Positions 532 through 20,650 of a stretch of DNA of 64,000 nt are shown piece after piece (position 1 is the stretch's first letter; each line of letters starts with the position of its first letter). The position numbers were made by a program, and so were the translations under genes. A model generated the notes under the pieces. The model saw nothing but the letters and a program-made list of their open reading frames with translations, searched no databases and was not told where the DNA came from. Source of the stretch: Gymnopilus junonius (Eukaryota > Basidiomycota > Agaricomycetes > Agaricales > Galerinaceae); the NCBI GenBank assembly GCA_015501075.1, contig JADNYJ010000128.1, forward strand, positions 1 through 64,000, written 5' to 3'.

Positions 532-630
532 ATGACCCTAGATTATCATATATGAAGAGAACTATACTTGTTATGACATATTTTTACACTAATATACACT
601 TCTTTTATTACTATTCACCTGTTCCTATAA

Positions 631-691
631 CTACTCTTCATCAGATCCTTCTTCTTCCTCTGTTTCTGTCTCTTCATCAAGTCCAATATCA
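631..691 (-). pseudogene. C-terminal end of the CxC5/CxC6-like gene, cut off by the LINE insertion
   Basis: On the minus strand this piece reads DIGLDEETETEEEEGSDEE and a TAG stop (633-631). It continues exactly the frame that ends at 19827 with GDIGLD. The LINE insertion duplicated the 15 bases TCAAGTCCAATATCA (677-691 and 19827-19841), so removing 677-19826 restores the gene's acidic C-terminus. The N-terminal part is at 19827-20650. Confidence 0.8.
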
Positions 692-1138: not shown

Positions 1139-1303
1139 TGTTAGAAGGACTGAAGTCCAGAGTTAAGAACTAACTAAATACAAGGAGAAACTATGTACTA
1201 CTCACCTGAAGTCCAGAGTTAAGAACTAAGGACTTCAGGAGGACTTAGCTACAATGTAACTACTCTGTGACATGTAACATATCATGTGAGAGTCACTCTA
1301 ACA
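1139..1303 (-). repeat. 3' LTR of copia-1
   Basis: This 165-bp LTR is bounded by TGTTAG and CTAACA. It contains a 20-bp direct repeat (CTGAAGTCCAGAGTTAAGAA) about 60 bp apart, and the complementary words CCTGAAGTCC/GGACTTCAGG. The purine-rich primer tract on the minus strand (ATGGGGGTA) abuts its inner edge at 1304-1312. Confidence 0.9.
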
Positions 1304-1374
1304 TACCCCCATGACTGAACATGTCTCTAAGTCTACAAACAAGAGAGAAAGAGAAAAACAAGACAAGAAAAGAT

Positions 1375-2900
1375 CTAAGATAACACACCCATTGATTCTC
1401 TGCAAAAGTGAACTTTGGGAGCAGGGAGAGACTTTGTCAAAGAGTCTGCAATCATGTCTGCTGTTGGAATGTAATCTGGAACAATCACACCTTCTTCAAC
1501 CTTGTCCCTGAGCCAAAAATGTCGAAGATCAAGTTGCTTCATCCTCCCATGATGTTCTGGATTCTTTGCAACTGTGATTGCACTTTGGTTGTCCATTTTG
1601 AGGGTTGAAGGTCCAGTAGCCAAATAACCAAATTCACCAAGGATGTTCCTCAACCAGGCAATCTCTTTACCAGCTTCAACTGCTCCAAGGTACTCTGCTT
1701 CAGTGGTGGAAAGTGCAACAAGAGTTTGCAACTTAGAATACCAACTGATAGCTCCTCCAGCCATGATTGAGACATAACCAGCTGTTGATCATCCTGAATC
1801 AATGCAGTCACCATGTGAAGCATCAGTGTACATTACAAAGGGCTCAGACATCGAATTGGTGCCAGAGTAAGTCAGCTTGTACTCCAAAGTTCCTTTGATA
1901 TAGCGAAGCAGGTGTTTGAGAGCCTGCCAGTGCTTGAAACCAGGATTGGAGTTGTAGCGAGCCAAAAAGCCCACAGAGTAAGCAATATCAGGTCGAGTCA
2001 TGGTGGCCAAATACTGAAGAGAGCCAACTGCAGACAGGTAAGGAATGGTTGCCATTTCTTGTTCCTCCTCAGGAGTGGAAGGGGACATAGAATGAGAAAG
2101 TTGGAGCTTGGGAGGAAGAGGGGTTTTGACAGGATGACATTTAGACATACCATACTTCTCAAGCATGTCCAGGATGAACTGGCACTGGTGGAGTGTTATA
2201 GTGTGCTTGGGGCGGTCTCTGCCAATGCCAATACCTAGTAGGAACCGAGTTGGGCCTAAATTGCGACATTTGAAGTAGGAAGAGAGTTGGGCAATGGTGG
2301 ACTCAATAGCAGACTGGGATTTTGAAGCAAGGGTGATATCATCAATGTAGATAGGCATAATGATGCGAACTTCAGAGTTGGAGTAGATGTAGACAGATCT
2401 ATCAGCTTGAATTCGCTTGAAGCCCATTTCCTCCAGAACTCCATGTAACTTCTTGTTCCACTGTCTGGCTGCCTGTTTGAGTCCATAGAGCGATTTGCGA
2501 AGTCTGCAGACTGCATTGGGTCCTCCTAGATGAAAGCCTTCAGGTTGCTTCATATAAATCTCCTCATCCAAGTCACCATTGGGAAAGGCAGAGGTGATGT
2601 CAAGAGAGTGGAGTTCTAGATCCTCAATGGCTGCCAATGCTAAAATCAAGCGCAGCGTTGCAGGGCGGAAGGTAGGTGCAAAGATCTCATTGTAGTCGAT
2701 TCCTGGACGTTGTGAGTACCCTTTGGCAACAATTCGTGCTTTGAATCGCTCAATTGAACCATCAGCATTGTGTTTGACTTTGAATACCCAACCAGATCCA
2801 ATTGCCTTTTGACCTTCAGGAAGATCCATAATTTCCCAAGTGTTATTCTCAACCAAGGAGTTGTACTCCTGTGTTGCAGCTTCACGCCATTGAGCTCCCA
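1375..2900 (-). pseudogene. copia-1 reverse transcriptase and RNase H
   Basis: The minus-strand frame opens with WVFKVKHNADGSIERFKARI and continues through LDITSAF (first RT aspartate), PEGF, SLYGLKQAARQW and IYIDDI (the YxDD box). The RNase H part carries STTEAEY, MDNQSAI and NPEHHGRMKQLD. An in-frame TGA at about 1787-1789 (after HGDCIDSG) splits it. The expected residue is Arg (CGA in related copies), so the stop fits C-to-T decay at a CpG. Order and motifs are those of Ty1/copia pol. Confidence 0.85.
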
Positions 2901-2966
2901 GAGGTGTCTTTAGTGCGTGTGTGAAGGAACGAGGTGTAGCATCATTTCCAGCAGCCAGAGCACCTT

Positions 2967-4490
2967 CTAAATCATCTTCATCATCTTCTGCCTCTTCAAT
3001 TGCTTTAGAGAGCGGTTTGATCTTCCACCATTCACCAGGGGGTCTAATAACACGAGTAGTGCGCCTAAGTGGCTGTGGAGTTGCAGGAGGCTGTATCTGA
3101 GCAGGAGGTGGTGGAGGTGAAGGAGTGCGAGGTGGTGGAGGGATTTCTGGACTAGGAGTGCGCTCAGGTGTAATTTGGGAACTGGATCAACTTGGGGCTC
3201 ATCTGGCTTCATATTTGTGTCCAAATCATCATCCTCCCCCCAGACCTCGAGTGGTGGTGCAAGGGGTGCAGGAACAGCATTAGGAGCAGGGAGAACCAGT
3301 GGGAGAGGTGAACCAGATGATTTGAAACCAGGACCAATGCCAGGAAATGACCTTTCATCAAACTCAGCTCTTTCAGAGATGATAAACTTCTTTGTGGTTG
3401 GATTGTAGAACTGCCAGCCTTTGTATCCAGTAGGGTAGCCCACAAAGATGCACTTCTCCATGTGAGGTCCAAGAGGGGTTCGCTTGTCCTTCTGAATAAA
3501 GACATAGGCTAAGCATCCCCAAACTCTGAAATGCGAAATGTCTGGTTTCTGGTGGTTCCAGGCTTCATAAGGTGTTGAATCTGATAGAGTGGATGTAGGG
3601 ATGCGATTCCAGACATGTATCATTGTTGCGAGTGCATAGGCCCAGAACCAAAGGGGCAGGCCAGCTTCAAAGAGCATTGCTGAGATATCATCAGACATAG
3701 TTCTGTTTGCTCTCTCTGCTACTCCATTCTGTTGTGGCCTATTCCTGGTGCTGTGTCGCCTAATTATCCCACAACTGTCTGTAAATGCGATAAACTCCTT
3801 AGACATGTATTCCCCAGCTTTATCATCCTGTAATGCTTTGATTTTTGCATCCAATTGGTTCTCTGCCCATGCTTTGAACTGTTTGAAGGCTGTAAATGTT
3901 TCGCTCTTTCGCTTTAGAAGGTAGGCAGCTCGGAGTGAAGTGCAGTCATCAATATAAGTGACCCAGTACCTATAGCCCTCAGGAGTTGGAGTACGAATGG
4001 GGCCATGCAGATCTGAGTGTACAAGCTCTAGAGGCTTGGTAGCTCTGCTGGGTGAAGTTGGGAAAGGATTGGAATGCATCTTGCCTGCTAAACAAGGCTC
4101 ACAAACTAAGTCAGGCTTTTCCTTCAAATCCAGAGTCATTCCAGTCACCAGACCATTTCTGTGCATCTTAGAGATGTCTGCATAATTTGGTGACAACAGC
4201 GACGATGCCAGAGTGTAGGAGTAAGTGGTAGTGTCGAAACCCAGTGTGCAGACTCTTGACTAAGTGCAGTGCGTCCTCCCAGAATTGCAGAGTTGTTGGA
4301 CTTCAAGGGAGCACAGAATAGGGTCTCATTTCACAGATTGAAGGCCATTTGCTCTGAATTAATGTGAATCTCAAAGCCCTTTACTCTGACAAGGTATAAG
4401 CATGAGAGAAGGTTTGATTGAAGTGCTGGTACATGAAGGACTCTAGAAAACTCTACTGGATGCATTGCCTGACCTCTACTGAACCCACAG
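2967..4490 (-). pseudogene. copia-1 GAG-pre-integrase and integrase
   Basis: Minus-strand coding sequence. The upstream part (about 4200-4480) reads VLHVPALQSNLLSCLYLV and LWHRR with frame breaks. The main frame from 4196 has the zinc-binding CEPCLAGKM and the integrase triad: Asp in HSDLHGP, Asp in LQDDKAGEY and Glu in PQQNGVAERANR. It ends in a proline-rich, frame-shifted linker before the RT. Integrase would insert the cDNA copy. The missing protease upstream and the frame breaks show that it is dead. Confidence 0.85.
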
Positions 4491-4491
4491 T

Positions 4492-7400
4492 TCCAATCTT
4501 AACGGACATGCCTTGCCATGATATGCCTCCCTCTGGGGACGCCCTTCATGGCACGTACAACTCGGCTTCTGACCGACCGTACGACATTAGTGGCCTCACC
4601 TCCCTTCCTGATATGGAAGTGCGAGAGTGGACCACCTTTTCACTGCTAGAGTTGGGGAGGCCTTGGCATCCTGTCTAACAACTCCGGCGCCGGGTCCTGA
4701 TCATATCAAGTGGTCACACCTTAAGGCGATTATTCGCGATGAACACTGTCTTCAGGTGTTCGTGCAGTTGGCTAACGCCTGCCTTCGGGTTGGGTATTGG
4801 CCGACTCATTTCAAGGAGTCCTTGTCGGTTATTATCCTAAACCGAACAAGCCCTCATATTCCACGCCTAAGGCGTTCAGGCCCATTGTGCTCCTGAACAC
4901 CCTTGGCAAATTGGTTGAGAAGATGCTTTCCAACCGCATTCAATTCGATGCTGTCAAGCACGATATTTTTCACCCCAATCAACTCGGTGGAGTGCGTCAG
5001 CGCTCCACTGAGGATGCAGGCTTGCTCCTCACGCACTTAGTGCGTGCCGGGTGGGCTCGCGGATTAAAGACAAGTGTCATCGCGTTCGACGTGGCACAGT
5101 TCTTTCCCTCTCTCAATCACGAAGTGCTGATTGCGATCTTAGGAAGCAGGGCTTCCCTCCCAACGTGGTGGAATTCTTTTCATCATACCTGGTCGGCCGT
5201 TCCACATCTTATGCTGGAACGGTTTTCAATCTGACCCCCGGCAAGCTGATGTCGGGGTGGGGCAGGGCTCTGCTTTGTCCCCGGTTCTTTCGGCACTCTT
5301 CCTCGCACCAGTGCTGAAACTTTTCATGCAGAATGCGTCGTTTCGACACCACTCTGCTTTCTTATGTCGATGATGGCACACTAATTGTGCAGTCAAAGAC
5401 CCTCGATGCCAACTGCATAGCCCTGAAAAGGTCCTATGCGGTGATCTTCGAACTTTCACAAAGTTCGCCCTCGCTCTTGAGCACGACAAAACGGAGTTGT
5501 TCCATTTTGATCGTCTCACTCGGAGTTCAATCCGTCCATGGATCTAGGGTACGCCCCCTACACCCGTGACAAACGTCTGACGCCCAAGCCGTTTTGGCGG
5601 TACTTGGGCTTCTTCTTTGACCGGAAATTGACATTCCACGAGCATGTCCGGTACTATTCTACCAAGTCCTTCACCACCGTTAAGGCGATGAGGATGCTTG
5701 GTAACTCATCTAGGGGGCTTACGCCCATGCAAAAGCGTCTGCTTTACAGGTCTTGTGTGTTGCCTATTGCAACATACGGCCTCCGCTTGTGGTTCTTCCA
5801 GGGTGCTAAGTGCCAGGGGACCATCAAACTACTGACCAGCATGCAACGTCATGCTGCGCTCTGGATTACTGGTGCATTCCGCACCTCCCCAACTGGAGGG
5901 ATCGAGGCCCTCGCTGGCCTGGTCCCTATCAACTTAGTCTGAAACGTGCTGCTGCAGTAGGTGTTCTGCGCATGGCGCCCTCTCGGACACTCATCCGGTG
6001 CGCTCTCTTCTGAGTGCGCCTTTTCCAAAGGAGCGACTCCTCACCCTCGCTCTGCTGCCTTTATGACTGCCCCACAACGCGCTAAGGTGCGGGGTACTGT
6101 TATGGACGTCGATGACACGCTCCATGTCGTCAGCGAGCCGCTGGAGCCTTTGCTCCGGAGGCTCGTCCAGGGGGCGATTCCTTGAGTTACATCATGGAAT
6201 TCGCTTTGATATCACTCCGGCCCCAAGGATAAGGTTGGGCTCCGGCGCGAATGGTTAGACCGCTTCTGGGAGGCCTCGAAGCGGGAACCGTCTACTCTGA
6301 TCTGTGTCGGCGACGGTAGTCGCCCCCTGATCGGAACAAGCAGGCTATTGCAGCTTCGCTTGTCTTTCGCCAGGGAGTTGAGGTGCATGCATCTCGCTAC
6401 GCGGCTGGGAGTGCTCTTGCAGAGGATGCGGAGCTTACTCCCTTCGTACTGCAATTGTCCGGGCTTGTGCCATGGACAATTGTGACTACATTGTTATCAT
6501 GTCGATTCCACCAAGGCTTGGGGAGTCTGCTTGATGCCTCCGTGCATTCCGGCCAGGGTCATTCCTTGGCTGTGATCCGCGCCCTTACAGAGTGGTGGAC
6601 CAGGGGCCTGGCCGCCACATCTCTCTTCATCATGTCCCATCTTCTCTGAAGTGGGGCATACACTATCAAGCTCATCTCATGGCGACTGAGCTTCTGTAGC
6701 GGTGGGGCCTAACACGCCACACTCACTTGCATCATGCGCAAAGCAGCTGACGATAATCCGGGGGAGGCTGGCAGAGTTGTTCCAGCAACCTTCGTACTCA
6801 GGGCGACAATTTTTGTTACTCACCGACCTCGACGGGGGTCGACTCGAACCACGGGCCAAACGAGGCGGTCCTGGCTTCAAGTCTGCAGGCGGCGACCTGA
6901 CTCTCTTTACAAGGGTCACTCGCGCCATCACCAACCATGCTCCCATTGGGGAGTACTACTCTCGATTCAACATTCCTGAATCCACCAGTTGCGAGTGCGG
7001 CCACCATACCCAAACTCGTGATCATCTTTCCGGACGTGTCCCCAGCACGACCGTCACGACTATCCAGTTCGTCTGGATCAGCTCGTATCCTTCTTGAAGG
7101 CTAATCCTACGGCATTCGCCTTCAACCGCCCCCCTCGGGGTGTCGGATAACTTGGTCGGGCAAGGTAGGTGTTGTTCTGTTGGCTGGATTCGGCGGTTTG
7201 GGGTGCGCTCAGAACAGGGTCCTAATACTTGGCGGGCTCGGCTTTGCTGGGTTGAGGGTGGGGGTCTGGGTTCTGGAGCTTCGGCGCTATCGACAGACAA
7301 GTGTGGCCCCCCGCTTCGGCGACCCGAAATGGTCTGCCTTCAGTGGCTAACACAGTATGCGCGCATCCTGGGCTGTCGGGTTTGGCTGGCGGGCCCCCTT

Positions 7401-7590
7401 CCGGTGCCCTTCTTTTACTTTGTTGGACCCCTCCCTTCGGTCGGGGCATCAACGAGAGTACGGGCCCATTGTTTTATGGTCCTAAGTGGCCCGCGAGAGC
7501 CAGTCTCCACTAGGCGTAGTTTAATGGTAGATTACTTGGGTGTATGTACATCTGCGACCGGACTGCTTTGCGCACCGGTATATAAATCCT

Positions 7591-7630
<40 letters not shown>
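4492..7630 (+). mobile_element. LINE copy B, 5'-truncated, inserted in copia-1
   Basis: This matches LINE copy A from codons just before the RT (copy A about 16690) to the 3' end, followed by 34 A residues (7597-7630). The RT (4680-5950), RNase H (6250-6700), CCHC region (about 6990-7030) and 3' untranslated region (about 7100-7596) are all recognisable but broken by many frameshifts. I find no target duplication: TTCCAATCTT on the left does not match GGTGGCTTAT on the right. The target also lacks copia-1 protease, so insertion probably came with a target deletion. Confidence 0.88.
4620..5950 (+). pseudogene. LINE copy B reverse transcriptase (broken)
   Basis: Pieces align in order with the intact RT of copy A: APGPDHIKWSHLKAI, FRPIVLLNTLGKLVEKMLSN, GVRQRSTEDA, VIAFDVAQFFPSLNHE, LLSYVDDGTLI (the YxDD box) and KPFWRYLGFFFDRKLTFHEH. 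They switch among the three plus frames at about 4680, 4830, 5135, 5320 and 5470. Each break is a small indel relative to copy A. The copy is inactive as read. Confidence 0.85.
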
Positions 7631-7632
<2 letters not shown>

Positions 7633-7639
7633 TGGCTTA

Positions 7640-8398
7640 TTGGCGCAGATAGTGCCTTGTTGGTTGCATACTCTGCTCCTCCTTGTATGCTCGCAATCCT
7701 TGATTCCATGCCTGGTCATTGCAGAAGATACAGGGACGCTTCCCAGAGTCAGAGGAAGCAGCCAGAGCCTCCCAACTGATATAGCTCATTTGCACGTCGT
7801 TTGCTTGTATATCCTCTGTAACAAATGCAGCTTGAAGAGTAGACTTGGAGAGGGAGTCCTTGAGAGTAGAGATGACACAAATGGCTTATTCATCAGGGAG
7901 GCCCTAATGAGTGCCATGCAAGCCAACTCCTCATCCACTTCTCCAGAGTGAAATCCTTCGTCTGAGGTCCCTAATTTGCTGCAGAGCAGTGTCAACTCGA
8001 TTGAGAAGGGCCTGCAGTGATTCCTCCTCTAATTTGCGAATGGAGAATAGGTCATCATAGGCATTGAACCTAGAACCTGGCTTCTTCTGCAAATGGATGT
8101 CCTCCAAAGCCTTCCACATTGCCACTGGATCGTCCCTGATTCCATTGAAATGCACTCTCTGTGGTGCCTCCACCATCAAGAACAGTATTCCAGCTGCCTT
8201 GTCTGCTTTCTGCTCCCAAATCTCCACTTTTTCGAGGTCTGAGTCGGTGGATGAGGTTGAAATTCTGGGCTTAACTTGCTTAGCAGACACTATGCGCCAC
8301 AGGCCAGTTGCACGGAACCAGGCCTCCATTTCACCGTTCCAGGTGCCATAGTTGGTGTCAGAGAGTTTTTGGAAGGTAGGAGTGGAGTTGGTGTTCAT
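7640..8398 (-). pseudogene. copia-1 gag with CCHC zinc knuckle
   Basis: The minus-strand start MNTNSTPTFQKLSDTNYGTW lies at 8398. The frame continues with GEMEAWFRATGLWRIVSA, MWKALEDIHLQKKPGSRFNA and YDDLFSIRKLEEES, the standard UBN2-type copia gag. The zinc knuckle near 7690-7720 reads CIFCND then HGIKDCEH across a one-base frame change. Gag packages the element RNA. Its 3' part runs into the A-tail of LINE copy B at 7630. Confidence 0.85.
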
Positions 8399-8949
8399 AG
8401 TGGGCAGAATGAGGCTGAAAAGGCGAAAAGGCAAAGTAGTAGAGTTGACACTTTATAGGAATAAGTGTTGATTGTGAATGACGAGGTGATCAAATGAGGA
8501 TGCAATGAAGCAGGCACGTCAAGGGTGTGACCCGTAACAGATAGTCCACATTGCAAAGAATGCGGCAAGGGCGTAGGCGAGGAAATGTGCAAAGATGAAT
8601 GAAGTGCTGATCTCACTGAGTTGAGATGCAAGACAATCTTCGATGATAACTCGAGGACCAGCAGTTGGAACGATGTGAAACAAGGCAATGTGAATAGCGG
8701 TAATACCAGTACTCAGTATGCGAAGTTGTGAATGTGTGCGAGAATGAATGGGCACGTTGTGAAGCGAAGTTGAATTGAGTCCTAATGGTCAAATTGAAGA
8801 AACGCAGTTTGCACGTTTGTCCGGGTAGCTATCTGCGTATAACTGCGTAGGCATGGCCGGGAACGTGTATGCGTGTGTGTATCGAAGTTGCGAAGCGGCA
8901 ATCTGCTAGAGTGCAAAGGAAATGAATAGAGTTGATTCCTGCAGTCTCA

Positions 8950-8968
8950 GATGCCGGGGCCCATAACC
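8950..8968 (-). promoter_or_regulatory. copia-1 primer-binding site (half initiator-tRNA type)
   Basis: Immediately inside the 5' LTR the minus strand reads GGTTATGGGCCCCGG. GGTTATGGGCCC is complementary to the anticodon stem-loop of eukaryotic initiator Met tRNA (GGGCCCATAACC), not to its 3' end. This is the arrangement known from Drosophila copia and yeast Ty5, where a cleaved half-tRNA primes cDNA synthesis. Copia-2 has the same site (13239-13257). Confidence 0.75.
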
Positions 8969-9133
8969 TGTTAGAAGGACTGAAGTCCAGAGTTAAGAAC
9001 TTACTAAATACAAGGAGAAACTATGTACTACTCACCTGAAGTCCAGAGTTAAGAACTAAGGACTTCAGGAGGACTTAGCTACAATGTAACTACTCTGTGA
9101 CATGTAACATATCATGTGAGAGTCACTCTAACA
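8969..9133 (-). repeat. 5' LTR of copia-1
   Basis: This 165-bp LTR differs from the one at 1139-1303 by about one base (TTACTAAA for TAACTAAA). Its outer flank, GGAC, matches the flank of the other LTR. Confidence 0.9.
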
Positions 9134-9137
9134 GGAC

Positions 9138-9655
9138 CTGGTGTCCTGCATCATCGGACGACAGCCAACAACCTGCTGAACACAGCAGCTATGCTGGGAT
9201 TGATGCTTTCTCTCCCAGTCAATCCGGGTCCCACTCACATCCCTGGCAACCCAATCCCTATGAGAGTCGGTCATCGACCTCATCTTCGTTCAATCCTACC
9301 GAGGAGCTGTCTGCAGGCACTCGGTGAGGGGAACTGTGGCGCGGGCCATCGGACCATGTTCCGTTGGCTTGTTCTATTTCTGTCGCTCTGGCGGCAGCCA
9401 CTGTTCCGATGCGCTCACTGCCACTGGATCAATTGGACAACTTCTTGTTGTCCATCATTGAGAAGCTCAAGGGCAATTGATCCCTTGGCGCCGATCGACT
9501 CCCCGGATCAGGTAGAGGCTGTGTCTTCGGATGTGGCTTCTGCCTTCTCGGATGCTTGGCGAAAGTATTCCAAGACGATTCGTATTTCTCCTCCTCCCGT
9601 CCCTGGTGGGACGACTCCTGTGAGGACTCTTTCGATGCTTATCAGCGGGATAACT
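9138..9655 (+). pseudogene. LINE copy A: C-terminal endonuclease and linker
   Basis: The sequence resumes the endonuclease interrupted at 1138. The frame reads GVLHHRTTANNLLNTAAM, LGLMLSLPVNPGPTHIPGN and, after a frame change, NPTEELSAGT. It then runs through a linker (PDQVEAVSSDVASAFSDAW) to AYQRDN at 9655. Copia-2 cuts in here, and the reading continues as YHDNHKTFRRAVKAAK at 16529. Small indels break the frame at least twice. Confidence 0.75.
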
Positions 9656-10163
9656 TGTTAGACTTGCACAAATAAGCAAGGATCTGTGTAGTTAACACAG
9701 CTCAACCAACTAGTATGCTCAAGTACAGCAATCACTGAGAATCACAGAGTATAACTCAAAATGCTTATAACTTGTTCAATTCAAATCGTAGTGTCTTGCT
9801 TTCGCTTGACATAGTAGGAAACATAGTATCTAATGTAGCTACGTGCCCAAAAACCGCGAGGCGTGACAAAACACCCAAAATGTGGACAATTCGAAAATGT
9901 CAAAACACAAACGTACTTTAAATGCCATGTATGCTATATCACTAGAACCGGATTTTCGACCTGATTTCAGATCTCAAATCCGTTTTCCGAAATTCTAACT
10001 CTACGCCGAGTAATTCGCAAAATACTAGAGAAAACGCGACCAAAAGCAGAAACTTAGTAAACTACAAGTGTCCAAATGAAGTGAAACTAATTCTAAGTCT
10101 ATTCTAAAGCTAATCTAATGTTTATAGAACATTGTTAGAAGTGTTTGATCACTACTTCTAACA
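9656..10163 (-). repeat. LTR of copia-2 (left, 508 bp)
   Basis: It starts TGTTAGAC and ends TTCTAACA. It is nearly identical to 13258-13766; I see two differences, GAAAATG/GAAGATG and one extra C. The low divergence implies a recent insertion. About eleven CpGs survive in the 3' two-thirds. Confidence 0.92.
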
Positions 10164-10213
10164 CAACCCCCTGATGAAACACTTCAACAATTCAAAAGGA
10201 GATGGAGCATCAT

Positions 10214-11700
10214 TCACTCCATATCTTCCACACAACCCCCTGATCGAACATCTCCCATTACCAATCCCATTAATTCTCTAAGCTTCTTCACTTGGGGCTT
10301 AGGCAGTGCCTTGGTCAACAGATCTGCAGGCATGTCCTCTGTTCGAATATAATGGGGCAGAATCCTTTTCATCTCTACCTGATCCCGCAACCAGTAAAAG
10401 CAAAGATCCAAATGCTTCATTCGCCCATGATGTTCTGGATTCTTTGCAACAGACATGGCTGACTGATTATCCATATACAACTTTGCAGGTGTAGTAGGAT
10501 GATAGCCCAATTCCTGTAACAGATTCTGCATCCATCTTATCTCCATGCCAGCAGCTCCTCCAGCAATGAACTCTGCTTCTGTTGTCGACCTAGTGACCAC
10601 AGGCTGCAGTTTGCTTCGCCATGAAACAACCCCTGAACCAAGCTTAACCATGTATCCACTAGTTGATTTGCCACAGTCCTTGTCCCCACCATGATCAGCA
10701 TCACAATAAGTTGCAAACAAGTGATTGCCAATCTCTTCATCAGGACCATACTCTAGCTTCATATCAACTGTGCCCTTCAAATAGCGGAACAGGTGTCTGA
10801 CAGCCTTCCAGTGGGTCATTCCAGGATTGGAATTAAAGCGGGCTAATACACCAACAGTGTATGCAATATCAGGACGAGTCATGGTAGCCAGATACATGAG
10901 GGATCCAACGGCGCTTATGTATGGGATGTCTTTCATTTCCATCACTTCATCCATAGTCTTAGGACTTTGCTCAGAGGTCAACTTTGAACCAGGCACCATA
11001 GGTGTGCCAATTGGTTTGCAATCAGCCATATTGAACTCTTCCAGCTTATTGATGATGTACTGGCGCTGAGCCAGGTACAATTTGCGATTCTTGCGATCTC
11101 TGGTTACTTCAACACCTAATAAGAAGTGGGTTTCACCTAAATCTCTTAGTTTGAATCGCTTGCCGAGTTCAATTACAAAGTTGTCCAGCAATTCCTTTGA
11201 CTTAGATGCCATAGTAATGTCATCAACAAAGACAGGTACTATGACTTTGATGCCATCTCGGTCATAGATGTAGAGTGAGGCATCACTATAGGTCTTCCTA
11301 AACCCAAGATCAGACAGCACCTTTCCTAAGGTCTCACCCCACAAGCGTGAAGCCTGCTTTAACCCATACAGGGACTTGTTGAGCTTACAGACATGATTCT
11401 TTCCACCCTGCTTGAATCCCTCTGGCTGCTGCATATAGATCTCCACATCAATATCACTGTTAGTGAATGCATAGGAGATATCTACTGAACGCAATTCCAT
11501 ATCCTCAATAGCAGCCAGAGCTAACACAACACGCACAGTTGCCTGACGCATAGTTGAAGCAAAGGTTTCAAAATAGTCCTGCCCAGGTCGCTGGCTAAAG
11601 CCCTTTGCAACCACACGTGATTTGAATCTCTCAATTGACCCATCTGCATTGTACTTGGTTTTAAATACCCATTTACACCCAATAACGATAGCCTTCGTGA
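10214..11700 (-). pseudogene. copia-2 reverse transcriptase and RNase H
   Basis: A long uninterrupted minus-strand frame of about 490 residues. RT motifs are WVFKTKYNADGSIERFKSRV, VDISYAF, EIYMQQPEGF, SLYGLKQASRLW and PVFVDDITMASKS (FVDD box). RNase H motifs are DADHGGDKDCGKSTSGYM, STTEAEF, YMDNQSAM, NPEHHGRMKHLD and DMPADLLTKALPKPQ. The N-terminal edge near 11690 is abrupt: integrase sequence EGYRYWV fuses to the RT entry GCKWVFKTK in another frame. That junction removes the integrase core and the start of the RT domain. Confidence 0.88.
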
Positions 11701-13118
11701 GAGATAACACCAAGATCATGCACATCAGAGTGAATTAATTCTAGGAGTTCTGTAGCTCGATGCTGTGAAGGAAGAAAAGGATTTGCATGCATCTTTCCAG
11801 CCAAACAGGGTTCGCAGATTGGATCAGGCTTTGCCTTGGAATCCAGTACCAAACCATCAACCATATCCTTAGATATCATAAGCTTGATATCATCATAGTT
11901 GTGGTGTCCAAGCCGTTTATGCCATAAAGACAAGTCAAGGGGCAGTGTAGAGGCCAAATGCACATTCTCCATTATATCTACTGTTGAACCATCTAGATAA
12001 CCAATATCATCCTCAGCAATAGAAGCACGGAACAATAGTTGACCTTTCTCAAGGAAGTCCATCTTTGCAGAAGAAATATGAACATCAATTCCCTTGTACT
12101 TAGTCAAATAGAGAACAGCAAGAAGGTTATTACGTAAGGCAGGTACATGTAAGACTCTAGTAAATAATACATCTCTATATTGTTTCCCATCTATTACAGG
12201 TCTAAATTTCACATAACCAACACCTTCAGAATAGATAACTCTATGATCCGCTAGTCTGATTGGGACTCTATAGGGGGTATAATTGCGGATCCAATTACGG
12301 TGTGGGGTCATATGAGAAGTGGCTCCTGTATCAGTGTTCCATTCAAACACATTAGAAGATGTAGCATTTGCCTCCAAGTCAGAAACAGCACTTGCCTTGC
12401 CAGCGCTCTCCATAACATTCGCTGCCCGTTCAACCTCTGCCTTTTTAGCACCCTCAATGTTGCTCTTAACCCTTCCTTTCAGCTCATTAAGGATAGGGCA
12501 GTCTGACATCCAATGACCCTTATCATGACAAAAGAAACAAGTGATGTCTTTTGCCTTCTTGTCTGAATTGCCACTGTGCCCACTTGAAACTCCATGGCTG
12601 TGATAGTTGTTTCCATTGCTTGGGCCACCCTTCTTCTTCTTCCAATTGTTGCCACCTGTCTTGGCAACACTAGCTGACTCCTGACGTTGACGATTTAACT
12701 CGTCACTTCTGAATGCTTGCAGAATTGTACCCTTGTCAAGTTTCGGCATCAACAACAATGATGATGACAAGACACGGTATTCCTCTGGTAAGGCACGGAT
12801 CAGTGCCATGCATTGGAGCTCTTCATCCAGCTCTTCAATAGTGAAGGTAGCTGGGCGCAGGTTCTGAATGGCCTGCATTGACTTCTCTATTCTGAGCCCC
12901 AATTGCATCAAGCTTTCATCATCCTGTTTTCTGATAGAAAACAGGTCGTCATATGCATTAAAGCATGCGCCAGGCTTCTTTGCCCTCATCTCACCACTCC
13001 ATTCAGGATAGTTTGAATTGGACAATGGCTTGATTCTAGCCATAGTGTCTGAATTGCTTGCAGACATAATTCCCAATTTGACAACAAGTGTAGTCAAGTA
13101 TAATTCAAGTGTAATCAA
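11673..13118 (-). pseudogene. copia-2 gag, protease and start of integrase
   Basis: The minus-strand frame starts near 13076 (MSASNSDTMARIKPLSN). Gag is internally deleted: GEMRA joins directly to KKPGACFNAYDDLFSIRK, losing the stretch that the fragment at 15883-16216 still encodes (WLMRNGLWRLVSGKE). It contains a CCHC knuckle CFFCHDKGHWMSDC, an aspartic protease active site WNTDTGATSHM, GAG-pre-integrase LWHKRLGHHNYDDIK and the integrase CEPCLAGKM and HSDVHD. The frame ends at EGYRYWV, where the integrase core is deleted. The element could move only with proteins supplied in trans. Confidence 0.85.
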
Positions 13119-13238
13119 TCACAGGTGTGATCAATATAATCCAACTTCAAGATTTGAACTAGGTTTAATAGTAGTTCAATATAAGCCTACAGAACACAGT
13201 TACTAGCAGTATGCAACTCAATCAGTTATGCCAAGTTA

Positions 13239-13257
13239 GAGCTCGGGGCCCATAACC
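13239..13257 (-). promoter_or_regulatory. copia-2 primer-binding site (half initiator-tRNA type)
   Basis: The minus strand next to the LTR reads GGTTATGGGCCCCGAGCTC. It has the same complementarity to the initiator Met tRNA anticodon arm as in copia-1, so both families probably prime with an internally cleaved tRNA. Confidence 0.7.
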
Positions 13258-13766
13258 TGTTAGACTTGCACAAATAAGCAAGGATCTGTGTAGTTAACAC
13301 AGCTCAACCAACTAGTATGCTCAAGTACAGCAATCACTGAGAATCACAGAGTATAACTCAAAATGCTTATAACTTGTTCAATTCAAATCGTAGTGTCTTG
13401 CTTTCGCTTGACATAGTAGGAAACATAGTATCTAATGTAGCTACGTGCCCAAAAACCGCGAGGCGTGACAAAACACCCAAAATGTGGACAATTCGAAGAT
13501 GTCAAAACACAAACGTACTTTAAATGCCATGTATGCTATATCACTAGAACCGGATTTTCGACCTGATTTCAGATCTCAAATCCGTTTTCCCGAAATTCTA
13601 ACTCTACGCCGAGTAATTCGCAAAATACTAGAGAAAACGCGACCAAAAGCAGAAACTTAGTAAACTACAAGTGTCCAAATGAAGTGAAACTAATTCTAAG
13701 TCTATTCTAAAGCTAATCTAATGTTTATAGAACATTGTTAGAAGTGTTTGATCACTACTTCTAACA
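13258..13766 (-). repeat. LTR of copia-2 (509 bp, internal copy)
   Basis: This is a full LTR with PBS on its gag side. Its right flank is copia-1 5' leader (GAAGTGCTGATCTC), not LINE, so it is the 5' LTR of a copia-2 that had entered a copia-1 copy. Confidence 0.9.
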
Positions 13767-14136
13767 CGAAGTGCTGATCTCACTGAGTTGAGATGCAAGA
13801 CAATCTTCAATGATAACTCGAGGACCAGTAGTTGGAACGATGTGAAACGAGGCAACGTGAATAGCGGTAATACCAGTACTCAGTATGCGAAGTTGTGAAT
13901 GTGTGCGAGAACGAATGGGCACATTGTGAAGCGAAGTTGAATTGAGTCCTAATTGGTCAAATTGAAGAAATGCAGTTTGCACGTTTGTCCGGGTAGCTAT
14001 CTGCGTATAACTGCGTAGGCGTGGCCGGGAACGTGTATACGTGTGTGTATTGAAGTTGCGAAGTGGCAATCTGCTAGAGTGCAAAGGAAATGAATAAAGT
14101 TGATTCCTGCAGTCTCAGATGCCGGGGCCCATAACC
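13767..14136 (-). repeat. copia-1 5' leader fragment
   Basis: Nearly identical to 8605-8968, the untranslated leader between gag and the 5' LTR of copia-1. It includes the PBS (about 14117-14136). It belongs to a second copia-1 copy whose body was lost in the copia-2 rearrangement. Confidence 0.88.
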
Positions 14137-14160
14137 TGTTAAAAGGACTGAAGTCCAGAG

Positions 14161-15728
14161 TTTTTTTTTTTTTTTTTTTTAAATCAAGGATTTATATACC
14201 GGTGTGCGAAAGCAGTCCGGTCGCAGATGTACATACTCCCAAGTAATCTACCGTTAAACTACGCCTAGTGCGAGACTGGCTCTCGCGGGCCAACTTAGGA
14301 CCATAAAACAATGGGCCCATACTCTCATTGATGCCCCGACCGAAGGGAGGGGTCCAACAAAGTGAAAGAAGGGCACCGGAAGGGGGCCCGCCAGCCAAAC
14401 CCGACAGCCCAGGATGCGCGCATACTGTGTTAGCCACCGAAGGCAGACCATTTCGGGGTGCCGAAGCGGGGGGCTACAAGGTCTGTCGATAGCGCCGAAG
14501 CTCCAGAACCAAGCCCCTACCCTCAACCCGGCAAAGCCGAAGCCCGCCAAGTATTAGGACCCTGTTCTGAGCGCACCCCAAACTGCCGAATCCAACCAAC
14601 AGGTAAACACCTACCTTGCCCACGAGATTTAGGGCACCCCTTGCGGGATGCCCTATTGGGAGATACTCGGGATTTCAGCAGGGAGTTATTACCCCACCTA
14701 CTTTGCCAGCCGGCGCCGAAGGGGCCGGGTGCCAGAGGGTCGGACTTGTGCCCTCCCTATTTGGTGCTGTGCCAGGGGCTTAGAGTGCCTGACATCTTAC
14801 AGCGGGGCCAGGGTCGTCTTACTAAGGACTCACACCAAGCGGCTTTGCCAGCATTTGCCAGCCAGGGTCGGCTTACAGGTTGTTGCGGCTTTGCGCCCTA
14901 CCAAGTAGGTACCTAGCTGTCCGGCACCCCTCATTGCCGTGACTCTTAGGACTACACTTTTCACTCCCAACACCCCGGATTCAACTTAAGCCAATGCTCG
15001 TGCTTATTATGCCGAGTTGACCGACAGAGGAGTTAGGTCTCTCGAGCCTGGATAGGGGGACTGCCCCGTCCAGCTACGGCCCATCAGTGTCTGGGTGTCA
15101 AACCAGTCTTTACTTCCCATCCCCAGGCATGAGGTTCGCTGGTGCCAACCGGCGCGGATCCCCCCATGTCCCAGGTCTCTGCCTTGCCACGTTCATAACC
15201 CAGATTGCCAATCCAGGAGTACAGATATGGTGACTAACGACCATGCTACAGTTTTCACATGGTGCCGGGTGCCCTGTCCCAGTTCCCACGGTGGCTTGCC
15301 TTAACCAAGGGGCAGCCAGGCCCATGGTGGCTAGGCCTTAACCAAGGGCCCAGCCCTATCGGGTCGGGTTGTTATCAGGTCCGCTTCCCGGTCATTACCG
15401 TGCCTTATCCTTTCGGACCCTTGCGGGCTAGGTCTGACTAAGCGATCCATGGAACCACCAGCCACAACCCTTAGGCTTTCACAGCTCAAATTGGTCCCCC
15501 AGTTATCATTGCCCCAAACCCTATGGCCTCCGGTCACAACCGGAAGTTTCCACTGGCCTATGACCCTAGGTTAGTCAGCAGCACAGTACCGCAGTGCCCT
15601 GTGACTTATACGCCACGGTCTGAACTTATGGTATTCGGTATTGTGAAGGAATCGAACCCTCAACCTCTTGGGTGTTGGCACAGCCACCCTTAAGCGCAAC
15701 ACAGTAGCCGCTAAGCCACCACGCCGCT
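14161..15728 (-). mobile_element. tRNA-headed, LINE-tailed non-autonomous retroelement (SINE-like, 1.57 kb)
   Basis: Read on the minus strand, the element starts at 15728 with a tRNA-like head and continues through about 1 kb of unique GC-rich DNA without a long frame. It ends (about 14626-14181) with the 3' untranslated region of the window's LINE. A run of 20 T on the plus strand (14161-14180) is its poly(A) tail. A 13-bp target duplication, CTGAAGTCCAGAG, flanks it. The tRNA-like promoter, shared 3' tail, A-tail and duplication together are the hallmarks of a SINE moved by a partner LINE. The length is far above the usual 100-700 bp. An alternative is a chimera made by template switching during LINE reverse transcription. 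Confidence 0.8.
15640..15728 (-). promoter_or_regulatory. tRNA-like head with pol III A and B boxes
   Basis: The minus strand carries TGGCTTAGCGG (A box) at about 15717 and GGTTCGATTCC (B box) at about 15653. The spacing is that of a tRNA with a variable arm. The acceptor and T arms do not pair into a convincing cloverleaf, so I read it as a SINE promoter head, not a working tRNA gene. Confidence 0.7.
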
Positions 15729-15882
15729 CTGAAGTCCAGAGTTAAGAACTAACTAAATACAAGGAGAAACTATGTACTACTCACCTGAAGTCCAGAGTTA
15801 AGAACTAAGGACTTCAGGAGGACTTAGCTACAATGTAACTACTCTGTGACATGTAACATATCATGTGAGAGTCACTCTAACA

Positions 15883-16216
15883 ATCACTAGGCACAGTCTC
15901 CTTGCCAGAGACAAGCCTCCATAGCCCATTTCTCATCAGCCATGCCCTCATCTCACCACTCCATTCAGGATAGTTTGAATTGGACAATGGCTTGATTCTA
16001 GCCATAGTGTCTGAATTGCTTGCAGACATAATTCCCAATTTGACAACAAGTGTAGTCAAGTATAATTCAAGTGTAATCAATCACAGATGTGATCAATATA
16101 ATCCAACTTCAAGATTTGAACTAGGTTTAATAGTAGTTCAATATAAGCCCACAGAACACAGTTACTAGCAGTATGCAACTCAATCAGTTATGCCAAGTTA
16201 GAGCTCGGGGCCCATA
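15883..16216 (-). pseudogene. Second copy of the copia-2 gag start and leader
   Basis: The minus strand encodes MSASNSDTMARIKPLSN and then GEMRAWLMRNGLWRLVSGKE, breaking off at 15883 where the copia-1 LTR begins. It preserves gag residues deleted in the copy at 11673-13118. The leader and PBS (about 16201-16219) match 13180-13257. Confidence 0.85.
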
Positions 16217-16219
16217 ACC

Positions 16220-16528
16220 TGTGAGGCGTGACAAAACACCCAAAATGTGGACAATTCGAAAATGTCAAAACACAAACGTACTTTAAATGCCATGTATGCT
16301 ATATCACTAGAACTGGATTTTCGACCTGATTTCAGATCTCAAATCCGTTTTCCGAAATTCTAACTCTACGCTGAGTAATTTGCAAAATACTAGAGAAAAC
16401 GCGACCAAAAGCAGAAACTTAGTAAACTACAAGTGTCCAAATGAAGTGAAACTAATTCTAAGTCTATTCTAAAGCTAATCTAATGTTTATAGAACATTGT
16501 TAGAAGTGTTTGATCACTACTTCTAACA
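16220..16528 (-). repeat. Truncated copia-2 LTR
   Basis: TGT is followed directly by GAGGCGTGAC, so about 200 bp after the LTR start are missing relative to 9656-10163. The end TTCTAACA and the outer flank TAACT are intact, which makes this the original right boundary of copia-2. Confidence 0.88.
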
Positions 16529-18137
16529 TAACTATCACGATAACCATAAAACTTTCCGCAGAGCTGTCAAGGCTGCTAAGCGCAAGTTCTTTGATGAATG
16601 CATCACTGAAGTTGCTACTACTAACAAGCGCCCCTGGGATCTAATGAACTGGATCCAGCAGCGTAAGTTACCATCCTCTGAGGCTATCCAATTCAACGGA
16701 CAGCCATGCCATGATATGCCCTCCCTCTGGGATGCCCTTCATGGCACGTACAACTCGGCCTCTGACCGAACGTACGACATTAGTGGTCTCACCTCCCTTC
16801 CTGATATGGAAGTGCGCGAGTGGACTGCCTTTTCACTGTTGGAATTGAGGGAGGCCTTGGCATCCTGCTCCAACAACTCGGCGCCGGGTCCTGATCATAT
16901 CAAGTGGTCACACCTTAAGGCAATTATTCATGACAAACACTGTCTTCAGGTGTTCGTGCAGTTAGCTAATGCCTGCCTTTGGGTTGGGTATTGGCCGACT
17001 CACTTTAAGGAGTCCTTGTCGGTGATTATTCCTAAGCCAAACAAGCCCTCGTACTCTACGCCTAAGGCATTCAGGCCCATTGTGCTCCTGAACACCCTTG
17101 GCAAATTGGTTGAGAAGATGCTTTCCAACCGTATTCAATTCGATGCTGTCAAGCACGATATTTTTCACCCTAATCAACTCGGTGGTGTGTGTCAGCGCTC
17201 CACTGAGGATGCAGGCTTGCTCCTCATGCACCTGGTGCGTGCCGAGTGGGCTCGTGGCTTAAAGACCAGTGTCATCGCCTTCGACGTGGCACAGTTCTTT
17301 CCTTCCCTCAATCACGAAGTGCTGATTGCGATCCTCAGGAAGCAGGGCTTCCCTCTTAACATGGTGGAATTCTTTTCATCATACCTGGTCAGCCGTTCCA
17401 TGTCGTATGCCTGGAACGGTTTTCAATCTGACCCCCGACAAGCTGATGTCGGGGTGGGGCAGGGCTCTGCTTTGTCCCCGGTACTTTCGGCACTCTTCCT
17501 TGCACCAGTGCTGAAGCTCTTCATGCAGAATGGGTCGGTCTCTGACACCACTCTGCTCTCCTACATTGATGACGGCACCCTCATTGTGCAGTCAAAGACC
17601 CTTGATGCCAACTGCTTAGCCTTGAAAAGGTCCTATGCAGTTATTTTCGAACTCTTCACAAAGTTTGCCCTCGCTCTTGAGCATGACAAGATGGAGTTAT
17701 TCCATTTTGATCATTCTCACTCAGAGTTCAATCCGTCCATGGATCTGGGGTATGCTCCCTACACCCGTGACAAGCGTCTGACGCCCAAGCCGTTCTGGCG
17801 GTACTTGGGTTTCTTCTTCGACCGGAAATTGACATTTCACGAACATGTCCGGTATTACTCCACCAAGTCCTTCACCACCGTTAAAGCGATGCGGATGCTT
17901 GGTAACTCATCTAGGGGGCTTACGCCCATGCAAAAGCATCTGCTTTACAGGTCTTGTGTCTTGCCTATCACGACATACGGCCTCCGCTTGTGGTTCTTCC
18001 AAGGCACTAAGTGCCAGGGAACCATTAAACTACTGACCAACATGCAATGTCATGCTGCGCTCTGGATTACGGTGCATTCCGCACCTCCCCAACTGGAGGG
18101 ATCGAGGCCCTTGCTGGCCTGGTCCCTATCAACTTAG
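16529..18137 (+). pseudogene. LINE copy A reverse transcriptase
   Basis: An open frame from YHDNHKTFRRAVKAAKRKFF, continuous with AYQRDN at 9655 once copia-2 and one TAACT are removed. RT blocks are PGPDHIKWSHLKAI, FRPIVLLNTLGKLVEK, STEDAGLLLMHL, VIAFDVAQFFPSLNHE (first catalytic Asp), ADVGVGQGSALSPVLSAL, LLSYIDDGTLI (YxDD box) and FWRYLGFFFDRKL, then the thumb (RGLTPMQKHLLYRSC). It would copy LINE RNA at a nicked target. The frame is lost at about 18070 by a one-base change before the RNase H region. Confidence 0.9.
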
Positions 18138-19325
18138 TCCTGAAATGTGCTGCTGCAGTCGGTGTTCTGCGCATGGCGGCCCTCTCGGACACTCATCCAG
18201 TGCGCTCTCTCCTGAGTGCGCCCTTTTCCAAAGGAGCGACTCCTCACCCTCGCTCTGCTGCCTTTATGACTGCCCCACAATGCACTAAGGTGGGGGTACC
18301 GTTATGGACGTCGATGACATGCTCCATGTAGTCAGCGAACCGCTGGAGCCCTTTGCTCCAGAGGCTCGTCCAGGCGGGCGATTCCTTGAGTTACATCATG
18401 GAATTGCTTTGATATCACTCCGGCACCCAAGGATAAGGTGGGGCTCCGGCGCGAATGGTTAGACCGCTTCTGGGAGGCCTCGAAGCGGGAACCATCCACT
18501 CTGATCTGTGTCGGCGATGGTAGTCGCCCCACTGACCGGAACAAGCAAGCTATTGCAGCTTCGCTTGTCTTTCGCCAGGGAGTTGAGGTGCATGCATCTC
18601 GCTACGCGGCTGGGAGTGCTCTCGCAGAGGATGCGGAGCTCTATTCCCTTCATACTGCAATTGTCCGGGCTTGCGCCATGGACAACTGTGACTACATTGT
18701 TATCTTGTCGGATTCCACCAAGGCTTTGGGGAGTCTGCTCGATGCCTCCGTGCATTCCGGCCAGGGTCATTCCTTGGCTGTGATCCGTGCCCTTACAGAG
18801 TGGTGGACCAGGGGCCCTGACTGCCACATCTCCCTTCATCATGTCCCATCTTCTCTGAAGTGGGGCATACACTATCAAGCTCATCTCATGGCGACTGAGC
18901 TCTCTGTAGCGGTGGGGCCTAACATGCCACACTCACTTGCGTCGTTGCATAAAGCGGCTGACGATAATCCCGGGGAAGGCTGGCAGGAGTTGTTCCAGCA
19001 ACCTTCGTACTCAGGGCGACAATTTTTGTCGCTCACCAACCTCGACGGGGGTCGACTCGAACCACGGGCCAAACGAGGCGGTCCCTGGCTTCAAGCTGCA
19101 GGCGGTGACCTGACTCTCTTTACAAGGGTCACTCGCGCCATCACCAACCATGCTCCCATCGGGGAGTACTACTCTCGATTCAACATCCCCGAATCCACCA
19201 GTTGCGAGTGCGGCCACCACACCCAAACTTGTGATCATTTGTTCCGGACGTGTCCCCAGCACAACCGTCACGACTATCCAGTTCATCTGGATCAGCTCGT
19301 ATCCTTTTTGAGGCTAATCCTATAG
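18138..19325 (+). pseudogene. LINE copy A RNase H and C-terminal CCHC finger
   Basis: After frame changes between 18070 and 18440, a 295-residue frame runs to 19325. RNase H motifs are LICVGDGSR (first Asp), DAELYSLHTAIVRA (Glu) and YIVILSDSTKAL (Asp), with HHVPSSLKWG near the end. The C-terminal CECGHHTQTCDHLFRTC is the cysteine/histidine finger common in Tad1-like elements. RNase H removes the RNA strand after first-strand synthesis. This end is largely intact. Confidence 0.88.
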
Positions 19326-19826
19326 CATTCGCCTTCAACCGCCCCCCTCGGGTGTCGGATAACTTGGTCGGGCAAGGTAGGTGTTGTTCCGTTGGCTGGA
19401 TTGGCGGCTTGGGGTGCGCTCAGAACAGAGTCCTAATACTTGGCGGGCTTCGGCTTTGCTGGGTTGAGGGTGGGGGCTTTGGTTCTGGAGCTTCGGCGCT
19501 ATCGACAGACCTTGTAGCCCCCCGCTTCGGCACCCCGAAATGGTCTGCCTTCGGTGGCTAACACAGTATGTGCACATCCTGGGCTGTCGGGTTTGGCTGG
19601 CGGGCCCCTTCCGGTGCCCTTCTTTTACTTTGTTGGACCCCTCCCTTCGGTCGGGGCATCAACAAGAGTACGGGCCCACTGTTTTGTGGTCCCAAGTTGG
19701 CCCGCGAGAGCCAGTCTCGCACTAGGCGTAGTTTAACGGTAGATTACTTGGGTGTATGTACATCTGCGACCAGACTGCTTTCGCGCACCGGTATATAAAT
19801 CCCTGATTTAAAAAAAAAAAAAAAAA
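19326..19826 (+). other. LINE 3' untranslated region and A-tail
   Basis: GC-rich, non-coding, nearly identical to 7100-7596 and, in reverse, to 14181-14626. It ends CACCGGTATATAAATC(C)CTGATTT plus A-run. The three-fold conservation of this tail, including in an element that otherwise lacks LINE sequence, suggests that it holds the reverse-transcriptase recognition signal. Confidence 0.85.
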
Positions 19827-20650
19827 ATCAAGTCCAATATCACCATCTTCTGTCTCCTGGTTTGACTGCTTCTTCTGCTGCTTCTTGATGGTGTATATAG
19901 TATGATAGAACAGCATAACATGAATAAACCAGTTGAAGTTTCCAGGAGTCATCCATTTGGCAATGGACTGATAGCCTCCAAGCCATGCATTGAGTTGTTC
20001 ACAGACTTGAGTATTGAAGGCCCAGTGACCATAAGGTTGTCCATTTGAATCATATTCCACAATCACAAAGTTTGGGGCCACATTGTTTGCTGGAGCAGGA
20101 TTGCAATAAGTCTGGCAGAGATAATCCTGAAGACAATGATTGATATAATGGTAGGCATCTACAATAAACTGAGATGTATGCTTCCATATCTCCCAGCTTC
20201 CATTGGTGACTGCAGTTGCAAGTACCTGACATGCTTTATTGATGCATATATAGTCAGGCCATGAGTCTTGGGTAGGATAAACTGATGCAAGGAAGTTGAG
20301 AATGTTGGTTGTTGATTCTGAATGAGCAAATTTGGTCCAAGCAATAACAACACCACAGGGTGCACAAATCATTTCAACACAGTAATAGTGGCCAGGGCTG
20401 AAGTAATTTGGTGGCAAAGGAGGATTGCTAGCAGGATCATCATGTCATTGAGGATTGGGGCCTCGGGATCTTGGCTGCCAAGCATAGCTTTCAGCTGATC
20501 TCTGGAGAAGTCAGTGGATACCTGACCAGACATTGTGACGGGAGTACTTCCTGAAGGTGTTCCAATCTGTCTGATGATCTTGGCAGGCAGAAGTTCCCTC
20601 AACACTTCAATTAGTGCAGTTATGCACCAAACACCATGATGCAAGAAGAT
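19827..20650 (-). pseudogene. CxC5/CxC6-like cysteine-cluster protein (KDZ-transposon-associated type)
   Basis: The main minus-strand frame starts PPNYFSPGHYYCVEMICAPCG (20430 down). It continues with VIAWTKFAHSESTTNILNF, PDYICINKACQVL, FIVDAYHYINHC, YCNPAPANNVAPNFV, FNTQVCEQLNAWLGGYQS and TPGNFNWFIHVMLFYHT. These paired Cys/His motifs are as I remember them for the CxC5/CxC6 proteins linked to KDZ transposons in basidiomycetes. An N-terminal piece (SGQVSTDFSRDQLKAMLGSQ, about 20560-20450) is offset by one base near 20435. The C-terminus is displaced to 631-691. The KDZ link is from family memory, and no KDZ transposase was found here. Confidence 0.65.

What the first reader, a model, noticed from the sequence alone, without database searches (positions are those of the whole stretch)
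14161..15728. A 1.57-kb element with a tRNA-like head and the tail of the resident LINE
On the minus strand it starts with A-box TGGCTTAGCGG and B-box GGTTCGATTCC. It continues with about 1 kb of unique non-coding DNA, ends in 445 bp nearly identical to the LINE 3' end plus 20 A, and has a 13-bp target duplication (CTGAAGTCCAGAG). These are textbook signs of a SINE mobilised by the LINE, but it is two to ten times longer than known SINEs. The body may hold something of its own, such as a structured RNA.
Basis: partly seen in the sequence, partly recalled or inferred. Interest (0 to 1): 0.78.

Follow-up and report, generated by a model that had tools for sequence, protein, structure and literature searches.

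The report
LINE-RNA chimera, not giant SINE
In a mushroom-type fungus, a selfish LINE element appears to have switched repeatedly, in mid-copy, from its own RNA to the end of a separate, unidentified 1.1-kb RNA and pasted the fused copies into the genome, much as described earlier in the rice blast fungus.

Summary
On the minus strand, 14161-15728, 1106 nt with A- and B-box motifs near the 5' end are followed by 442 nt of LINE 3' end and 20 A, within a 13-bp target duplication; the empty site is in the window. It is not a giant SINE. The 58-Mb genome search found 7 copies of head+body. All 7 are fused to the same LINE, at 6 different LINE sites, while the body ends at ...CTAAATCTCG (in 3 of 7 only if one decay transition is allowed). 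Four copies begin at the same base after four different target duplications; a fifth is a tripartite LINE-body-LINE. The full-length LINE lacks the body. So the body is best read as a discrete ~1106-nt RNA onto whose 3' end the LINE reverse transcriptase jumps, as published for Magnaporthe MINE/WEIRD (WEIRD: 1113 nt, also without a solo gene). Two 20-nt WEIRD primers do not match the body. No solo source gene was found, although U2, U5 and U6 were; 5S and 5.8S rRNA were not found either, so the source may lie in an unassembled array. A post hoc GGN pattern precedes the switch sites (6 of 6). The RNA's identity stays open.

The parts
15729..15741 (-). target-site duplication, 5' side of the element (reads CTCTGGACTTCAG on the minus strand)
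15634..15728 (-). tRNA-like head; its first base is the fixed 5' end (AGCGGCG) seen in 4 of 7 copies
   Evidence: 21 of 25 bases around the B box match a tRNA gene of this genome; Rfam tRNA model does not match
15708..15718 (-). A-box-like motif TGGCTTAGCGG
   Evidence: consensus recalled
15648..15658 (-). B-box-like motif GGTTCGATTCC
   Evidence: consensus recalled
14623..15728 (-). copy of the inferred ~1106-nt acceptor RNA (head plus body), ends ...CCCTAAATCTCG
   Evidence: 7 copies found in the genome
14623..14662 (-). predicted 3'-terminal hairpin with GCAA loop, followed by a short tail
   Evidence: last 40 nt fold at -22.0 kcal/mol
14181..14622 (-). 5'-truncated LINE 3' end (LINE positions 5946-6387)
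14161..14180 (-). poly(A), 20 nt
14148..14160 (-). target-site duplication, 3' side

Best explanation
The element is a LINE template-switch chimera. Target-primed reverse transcription started on the poly(A) of the resident LINE RNA, stopped at LINE position 5946, jumped to the 3' end of a separate ~1106-nt RNA, copied that RNA to its 5' end, and the fused cDNA was closed into an older repeat with a 13-bp duplication. The same has happened at six LINE sites in this genome with the same acceptor. Shown here: anatomy, fixed acceptor ends, variable LINE stops, duplications, absence of the body from the full-length LINE. Inferred: that the acceptor exists as a free RNA, that it is made by RNA polymerase III from its A/B boxes, and that its gene sits in DNA missing from the assembly. 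The LINE encodes a reverse transcriptase by Pfam; an APE-type endonuclease is suggested by PF14529 in some of its listed relatives; its RNase H is my reading of motifs, and Pfam found no family there.
For: 7 of 7 genomic copies found for the body are joined on their 3' side to the same LINE, at LINE 5946, 5035, ~5126, 4403, 4884 and, twice, 4062/4063. The body ends at CTCG in 4 of 7 as read, and in the other 3 (C6, C137, C90) if one C>T or G>A change is allowed. Four copies are complete at the 5' end and begin AGCGGCG directly after different duplications of 13-15 bp: CTCTGGACTTCAG, GATTGACTCTTGCCA, CCCTCAACCCAGCA, CCATTAAGGCGATG. C90 is LINE(4187-5108)-body(from 57)-LINE(4884-6387)-A within one 14-bp duplication, GATGAGCCCCAAGT. 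A full-length LINE (6387 nt, duplication GGGAAAATTATAC) and three more copies with the same 5' start carry no body. LINE bases before the junctions are not AG. Of 10 other LINE boundaries, 0 have GG there; Fisher p 0.002 for 6 of 6 against the 6 that look like simple truncations.
Against: No RNA data. C211b begins inside the body (base 506) with no duplication found, and C6 begins at a contig end, so 2 of 7 copies cannot be shown to be single insertions. No solo gene was found. The comparison boundaries were not checked for duplications. At the window's junction the LINE just upstream resembles the body end somewhat, so a little homology cannot be excluded there.
Confidence: 0.92

Rival explanations
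1. A long tRNA-derived SINE: the unit transcribed and mobilised is head + body + LINE tail, amplified as one element.
For: A/B-box motifs, LINE 3' end with poly(A), duplications.
Against: The 7 tails begin at 6 LINE sites and differ in length (442 nt to ~2.3 kb) while the body end is constant. Only C6 and C211b switch within 1 nt of each other, and they differ at the non-CpG site 732, though C6 is an error-rich copy.
Confidence: 0.03
2. The head and body are an alternative 5' end (promoter/UTR) of the LINE, and the copies are internally deleted or spliced LINEs.
For: Body lies upstream of LINE in the same orientation in 7 of 7.
Against: Four LINE copies with a common 5' start lack it, one of them between exact duplications; LINE stops vary and are not at AG; C90 has LINE on both sides of the body within one duplication.
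Confidence: 0.03
3. Mechanism as in the best explanation, but the acceptor is not from a host gene: it is an extrachromosomal replicon or viral/satellite RNA, which would explain the missing solo gene.
For: No solo copy found in 58 Mb although U2, U5 and U6 genes were found; WEIRD also lacks a solo copy in print (PMC2104539).
Against: Three exact probes find nothing in IMG/VR (a weak test); Rfam gives only two chance-level matches, SNORD93 E 4.3 and Prion_pknot E 7.9; A/B-box motifs point to a cellular gene; 5S and 5.8S rRNA were not found in the assembly either, so the absence has a simpler reason.
Confidence: 0.12

Closest known systems
MINE (WEIRD-MGL chimeras) of Magnaporthe grisea/oryzae (Fudal 2005: seen only as a citation; Gogvadze 2007, PMC2104539: parts 1-4 of 5 of the text read)
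   Same: ~1.1-kb non-coding 5' part (WEIRD 1113 nt; here ~1106 nt), joined to a variably 5'-truncated LINE; target duplications; recurrent; one tripartite example; no solo copy of the RNA found in the assembly; a short sequence preference at switch points (GCC before the switch there, GGN here).
   Different: Different kind of fungus; the two WEIRD primers printed in PMC3978060 match the body no better than shuffles; WEIRD was shown to be expressed, this RNA was not tested; A/B-box motifs here, none mentioned for WEIRD in the parts read; the published tripartite contains Mg-SINE, here LINE stands on both sides of the body.
U6-L1 and related LINE chimeras of mammals, lizard and platypus (PMC4476161, passages read)
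   Same: Acceptor RNA followed by a 5'-truncated LINE, flanked by duplications.
   Different: The acceptor is an unknown 1.1-kb RNA, not U6; none of the 5 U6 places found here has this LINE within 1.5 kb.
tRNA-derived SINEs with a LINE 3' end (recalled); Alu-like megB1 of Tricholoma (named in PMC10627285, passages read)
   Same: A/B-box-like head, LINE 3' end, poly(A).
   Different: No fixed tail; body ~1 kb; the repeated unit itself lacks the LINE tail. megB1 was not compared by sequence.

Membership tests
LINE template-switch chimeric retrogenes (criteria as listed in PMC2104539) | 5' part is a full-length copy of another cellular RNA | tested here: inconclusive
LINE template-switch chimeric retrogenes (criteria as listed in PMC2104539) | 3' part is a 5'-truncated LINE | tested here: met
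   7 of 7
LINE template-switch chimeric retrogenes (criteria as listed in PMC2104539) | truncation points differ between copies | tested here: met
   6 sites among 7 copies
LINE template-switch chimeric retrogenes (criteria as listed in PMC2104539) | parts joined directly in the same orientation | tested here: met
   7 of 7
LINE template-switch chimeric retrogenes (criteria as listed in PMC2104539) | flanking target duplications | tested here: met
   5 of 7; none found for C211b, contig end for C6
WEIRD RNA family | sequence homology to WEIRD | tested here: inconclusive
   Only two 20-nt WEIRD primers and one MINE primer were available; none matches above shuffles. The full WEIRD sequence was not obtained
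tRNA-derived SINE mobilised by a LINE (features recalled) | copies share head, body and the same LINE-derived tail | tested here: not met
tRNA-derived SINE mobilised by a LINE (features recalled) | transcribed as a unit from a pol III promoter | not testable with these tools
   motifs only; no transcript data

The most novel reading that the evidence does not exclude
Fungi of different phyla possess an abundant ~1.1-kb polymerase III-type RNA, encoded in a tandem array that assemblies drop (rDNA or similar), and this RNA is the preferred second template of their LINE reverse transcriptases. WEIRD of Magnaporthe and the RNA described here would be two members of one unrecognised RNA class, visible only through the chimeras.
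Probability: 0.25. Interest if true: 0.75.

Novelty: new member of a known kind. Interest (0 to 1): 0.55.

Why it matters
In the papers seen here WEIRD is an oddity of one fungus: an expressed RNA with no gene in the assembly. A second RNA of nearly the same length, without visible similarity to it, behaving the same way in what looks like a basidiomycete would turn the oddity into a pattern that can be tested: find the source gene in complete assemblies of both fungi and ask whether it is the same class of RNA. The possible switch-point preference is also a handle on how LINE reverse transcriptases change templates.

Tried and rejected
Considered and dropped. (1) Giant SINE: tails vary. (2) LINE 5' UTR or splicing: full-length LINE lacks the body, junctions are not AG. 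(3) Twin-priming inversion for the C137 copy: suspected from the output, but one search shows an ordinary insertion with its own 14-bp duplication next to antisense LINE. (4) Known RNA families: nothing at gathering level; below it only SNORD93 (E 4.3) and Prion_pknot (E 7.9), both chance-level. No telomerase-like template, assuming a TTAGGG telomere (recalled): longest CCCTAA-register match 6 nt. (5) Structured RNA by folding energy: z -0.58 sense, -0.72 antisense; 1 of 21 local windows below -2. (6) Lack of TTTT in the body as a pol III argument: 232 of 500 shuffles lack it too. (7) Two body groups as proof of two source genes: 22 of 25 shared base differences are at CpG/TpG sites and can recur; only sites 271, 732 and 882 are not. 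(8) Two LINE hits that seemed to start inside the body (C515, C594) are ordinary LINE. (9) Literature: the listings seen (9 of 9 papers; 20 of 34; 20 of 94; 20 of 70; 10 of 2,230) showed no basidiomycete report of such chimeras; most subscription journals are not held.

Full report
WHAT IS THERE. On the minus strand the element runs from 15728 to 14161. Bases 1-1106 are a head with A- and B-box-like motifs and a body without coding signs; bases 1107-1548 are the LINE 3' end; bases 1549-1568 are A. The 13-bp duplication is exact, and the joined flanks align to the repeat at 8786-9170 with one copy of the 13-mer, the empty site. The A/B-box pattern is not expected by chance in 64 kb (0.01). Around the B box 21 of 25 bases match a tRNA gene of this genome, L069 (local score 30, 0 of 200 shuffles reach it). 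That test covered 10 of the 63 tRNA places, and 6 of those 10 loci lay on the wrong strand for it; of the other three, L061 and L062 scored 20 (2 and 1 of 200 shuffles reach it) and L066 15 (43 of 200). ARAGORN and the Rfam tRNA model do not call the head a tRNA.

THE HOST. The window lies in a 58.0-Mb, 898-contig genome. The LINE's reverse transcriptase is closest to proteins named from Cyclocybe, Candolleomyces, Psilocybe, Leucocoprinus, Galerina, Coprinellus and to Tricholoma matsutake Pol-2 (985 proteins with E up to 0.001 among 7998 scored, best 120 listed). These are Agaricales by recall, so the host is probably an agaricomycete; the species was not determined.

COPIES. A genome search with bases 1-1106 returned 7 places, 7 of 7 first-look candidates scored: this one; C211 10497-11600 (C211a); C137 40065-41169; C620 3649-4750; C90 357885-358932 (body from base 57); C211 22520-23120 (C211b, from base 506); C6 1-495 (from base 585, at a contig end). 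Pairwise identity is 96.5-99.0% among six of them and 93.1-94.5% to C6, which has 24 private substitutions and 25 private indel columns. Each of the 7 continues on its 3' side into the same LINE in the same orientation, at positions 5946, 5035, ~5126, 4403, 4884, 4062 and 4063 of a 6387-nt LINE copy from C160. No copy found stands alone.

ENDS OF THE BODY. The complete 5' ends (window, C211a, C137, C620) begin AGCGGCG directly after four different duplications of 13-15 bp. The 3' end reads ...CTCG in 4 of 7 copies and, in C6, C137 and C90, if one C>T or G>A change is allowed. Such changes are the main decay of the window and C137 copies: 11 of 15 and 9 of 13 private changes are CpG transitions. 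C211b has no duplication that I could find, and C6 cannot be checked.

A TRIPARTITE COPY. In C90, LINE 4187-5108, body from base 57, and LINE 4884-6387 with poly(A) lie within one 14-bp duplication, GATGAGCCCCAAGT. A double switch explains this. A body-LINE unit nested later into a LINE would be expected to leave a duplication at the LINE-body boundary; none of 9 bp or more was found there.

WHY NOT PART OF THE LINE. I fetched six regions upstream of LINE copies. Four (C137, C292, C195, C160) share one 5' start (ATCCTTCTTTCCC...) with different flanks and no body before it; the C579 copy begins some 70 nt further in, and the C37 region showed no LINE 5' end. The C160 copy lies between exact duplications.

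SWITCH SITES. If the body ends at CTCG in every copy, the LINE bases before the retained part are GGT (window), GGT (C211a), GGT or AGT depending on the LINE copy (C211b and C6), GGA (C620), GGC (C137) and GGA (C90): GG at -3/-2 in 6 of 6 sites on the reference LINE. One search shows 10 distinct other LINE boundaries (14 rows, three near-identical loci counted once for each of their two boundaries); 0 of 10 have GG there. The Fisher test used the six that look like simple 5' truncations (L026, L025, L027, L037 first row, L031 group minus-strand row, window 691) and left out L021 (two rows), the second L037 row and the L031 group plus-strand row; none of the boundaries was checked for duplications. 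PMC2104539 reports GCC before the switch in Magnaporthe. I read the pattern as end-to-end jumping from defined LINE RNA ends, an inference.

THE RNA. Rfam gives nothing but two chance-level matches. Global folding is not better than shuffles; 1 of 21 local windows, starting at base 1001, has z -2.72. Non-CpG private changes number 4 (window), 0 (C211a), 4 (C137), 1 (C211b), 0 (C620), 3 (C90) and 20 (C6, error-rich), so apart from C6 the copies stem from a nearly uniform source. No solo gene was found. Other small RNA genes were: U6 at 5 places, U2 at 4, U5 at 1. But the 5.8S and 5S models found nothing (39 of 1949 and 47 of 2411 first-look candidates scored), so tandem rDNA seems to be missing; an RNase P search was uninformative. 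The source may therefore lie in rDNA or another dropped array. None of the 5 U6 loci has this LINE within 1.5 kb.

COMPARISON. Gogvadze et al. 2007 (PMC2104539; parts 1-4 of 5 read) describe 31 MINE copies: WEIRD, a 1113-nt non-coding RNA expressed in mycelium and spores, full-length, fused to 5'-truncated MGL LINE, with no solo copy found, one tripartite copy, and a switch-site motif. The present system meets the listed criteria apart from proof of the RNA. Two WEIRD primers from PMC3978060 (passages) match the body no better than shuffles; 40 bases are a weak test, so homology is neither shown nor excluded. In mammals, platypus and a lizard U6 plays the acceptor role (PMC4476161, passages).

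VERDICT. A recurrent LINE template-switch chimera with an unidentified ~1.1-kb RNA: a known mechanism, a further fungal case with a new acceptor. The interesting open question is the RNA, not the chimera.

Noticed in passing
G000 assembly: 5S and 5.8S rRNA models find nothing in the 58-Mb assembly (part of the first-look candidates scored), so rDNA arrays appear to be missing.
   Followed up: partly
LINE positions 4062/4063 (C211b and C6): Two chimeras whose bodies differ at a non-CpG site switch within 1 nt of the same LINE position, a possible hot spot like those reported in Magnaporthe.
   Followed up: partly
window 14238-14264, minus strand (LINE 3' end): The stretch GCGTAGTTTAACGGTAGATTACTTGGG looks, by recall, like a tRNA D-arm, so the LINE tail itself may carry a tRNA-like piece.
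   Followed up: no
L049 2153-2212 and 2359-2418: A LINE 5' end has an inverted copy of its own first 60 nt about 150 bp upstream; origin not explained.
   Followed up: no
L031, L030, L023: Three near-identical loci hold two LINE pieces head to head (LINE 1897 on one strand, 5282 on the other), which may be a twin-priming inversion.
   Followed up: no
window 1-20000: Nest of retroelements: LINE pieces among elements whose minus-strand ORFs (1789-4196, 10214-13118) look copia-type by recall, with shared repeats near 1138, 8968 and 15717.
   Followed up: partly
body copies, window and C137: Private changes are mostly CpG transitions, as expected if inserted copies are methylated and decaying (inference).
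   Followed up: partly
window junction at 14622/14623: In this copy the LINE just before the switch point (GGGGTGTCGGATAACTTGGT) resembles the end of the body (GGGGTGCCCTAAATCTCGT); possibly chance.
   Followed up: no
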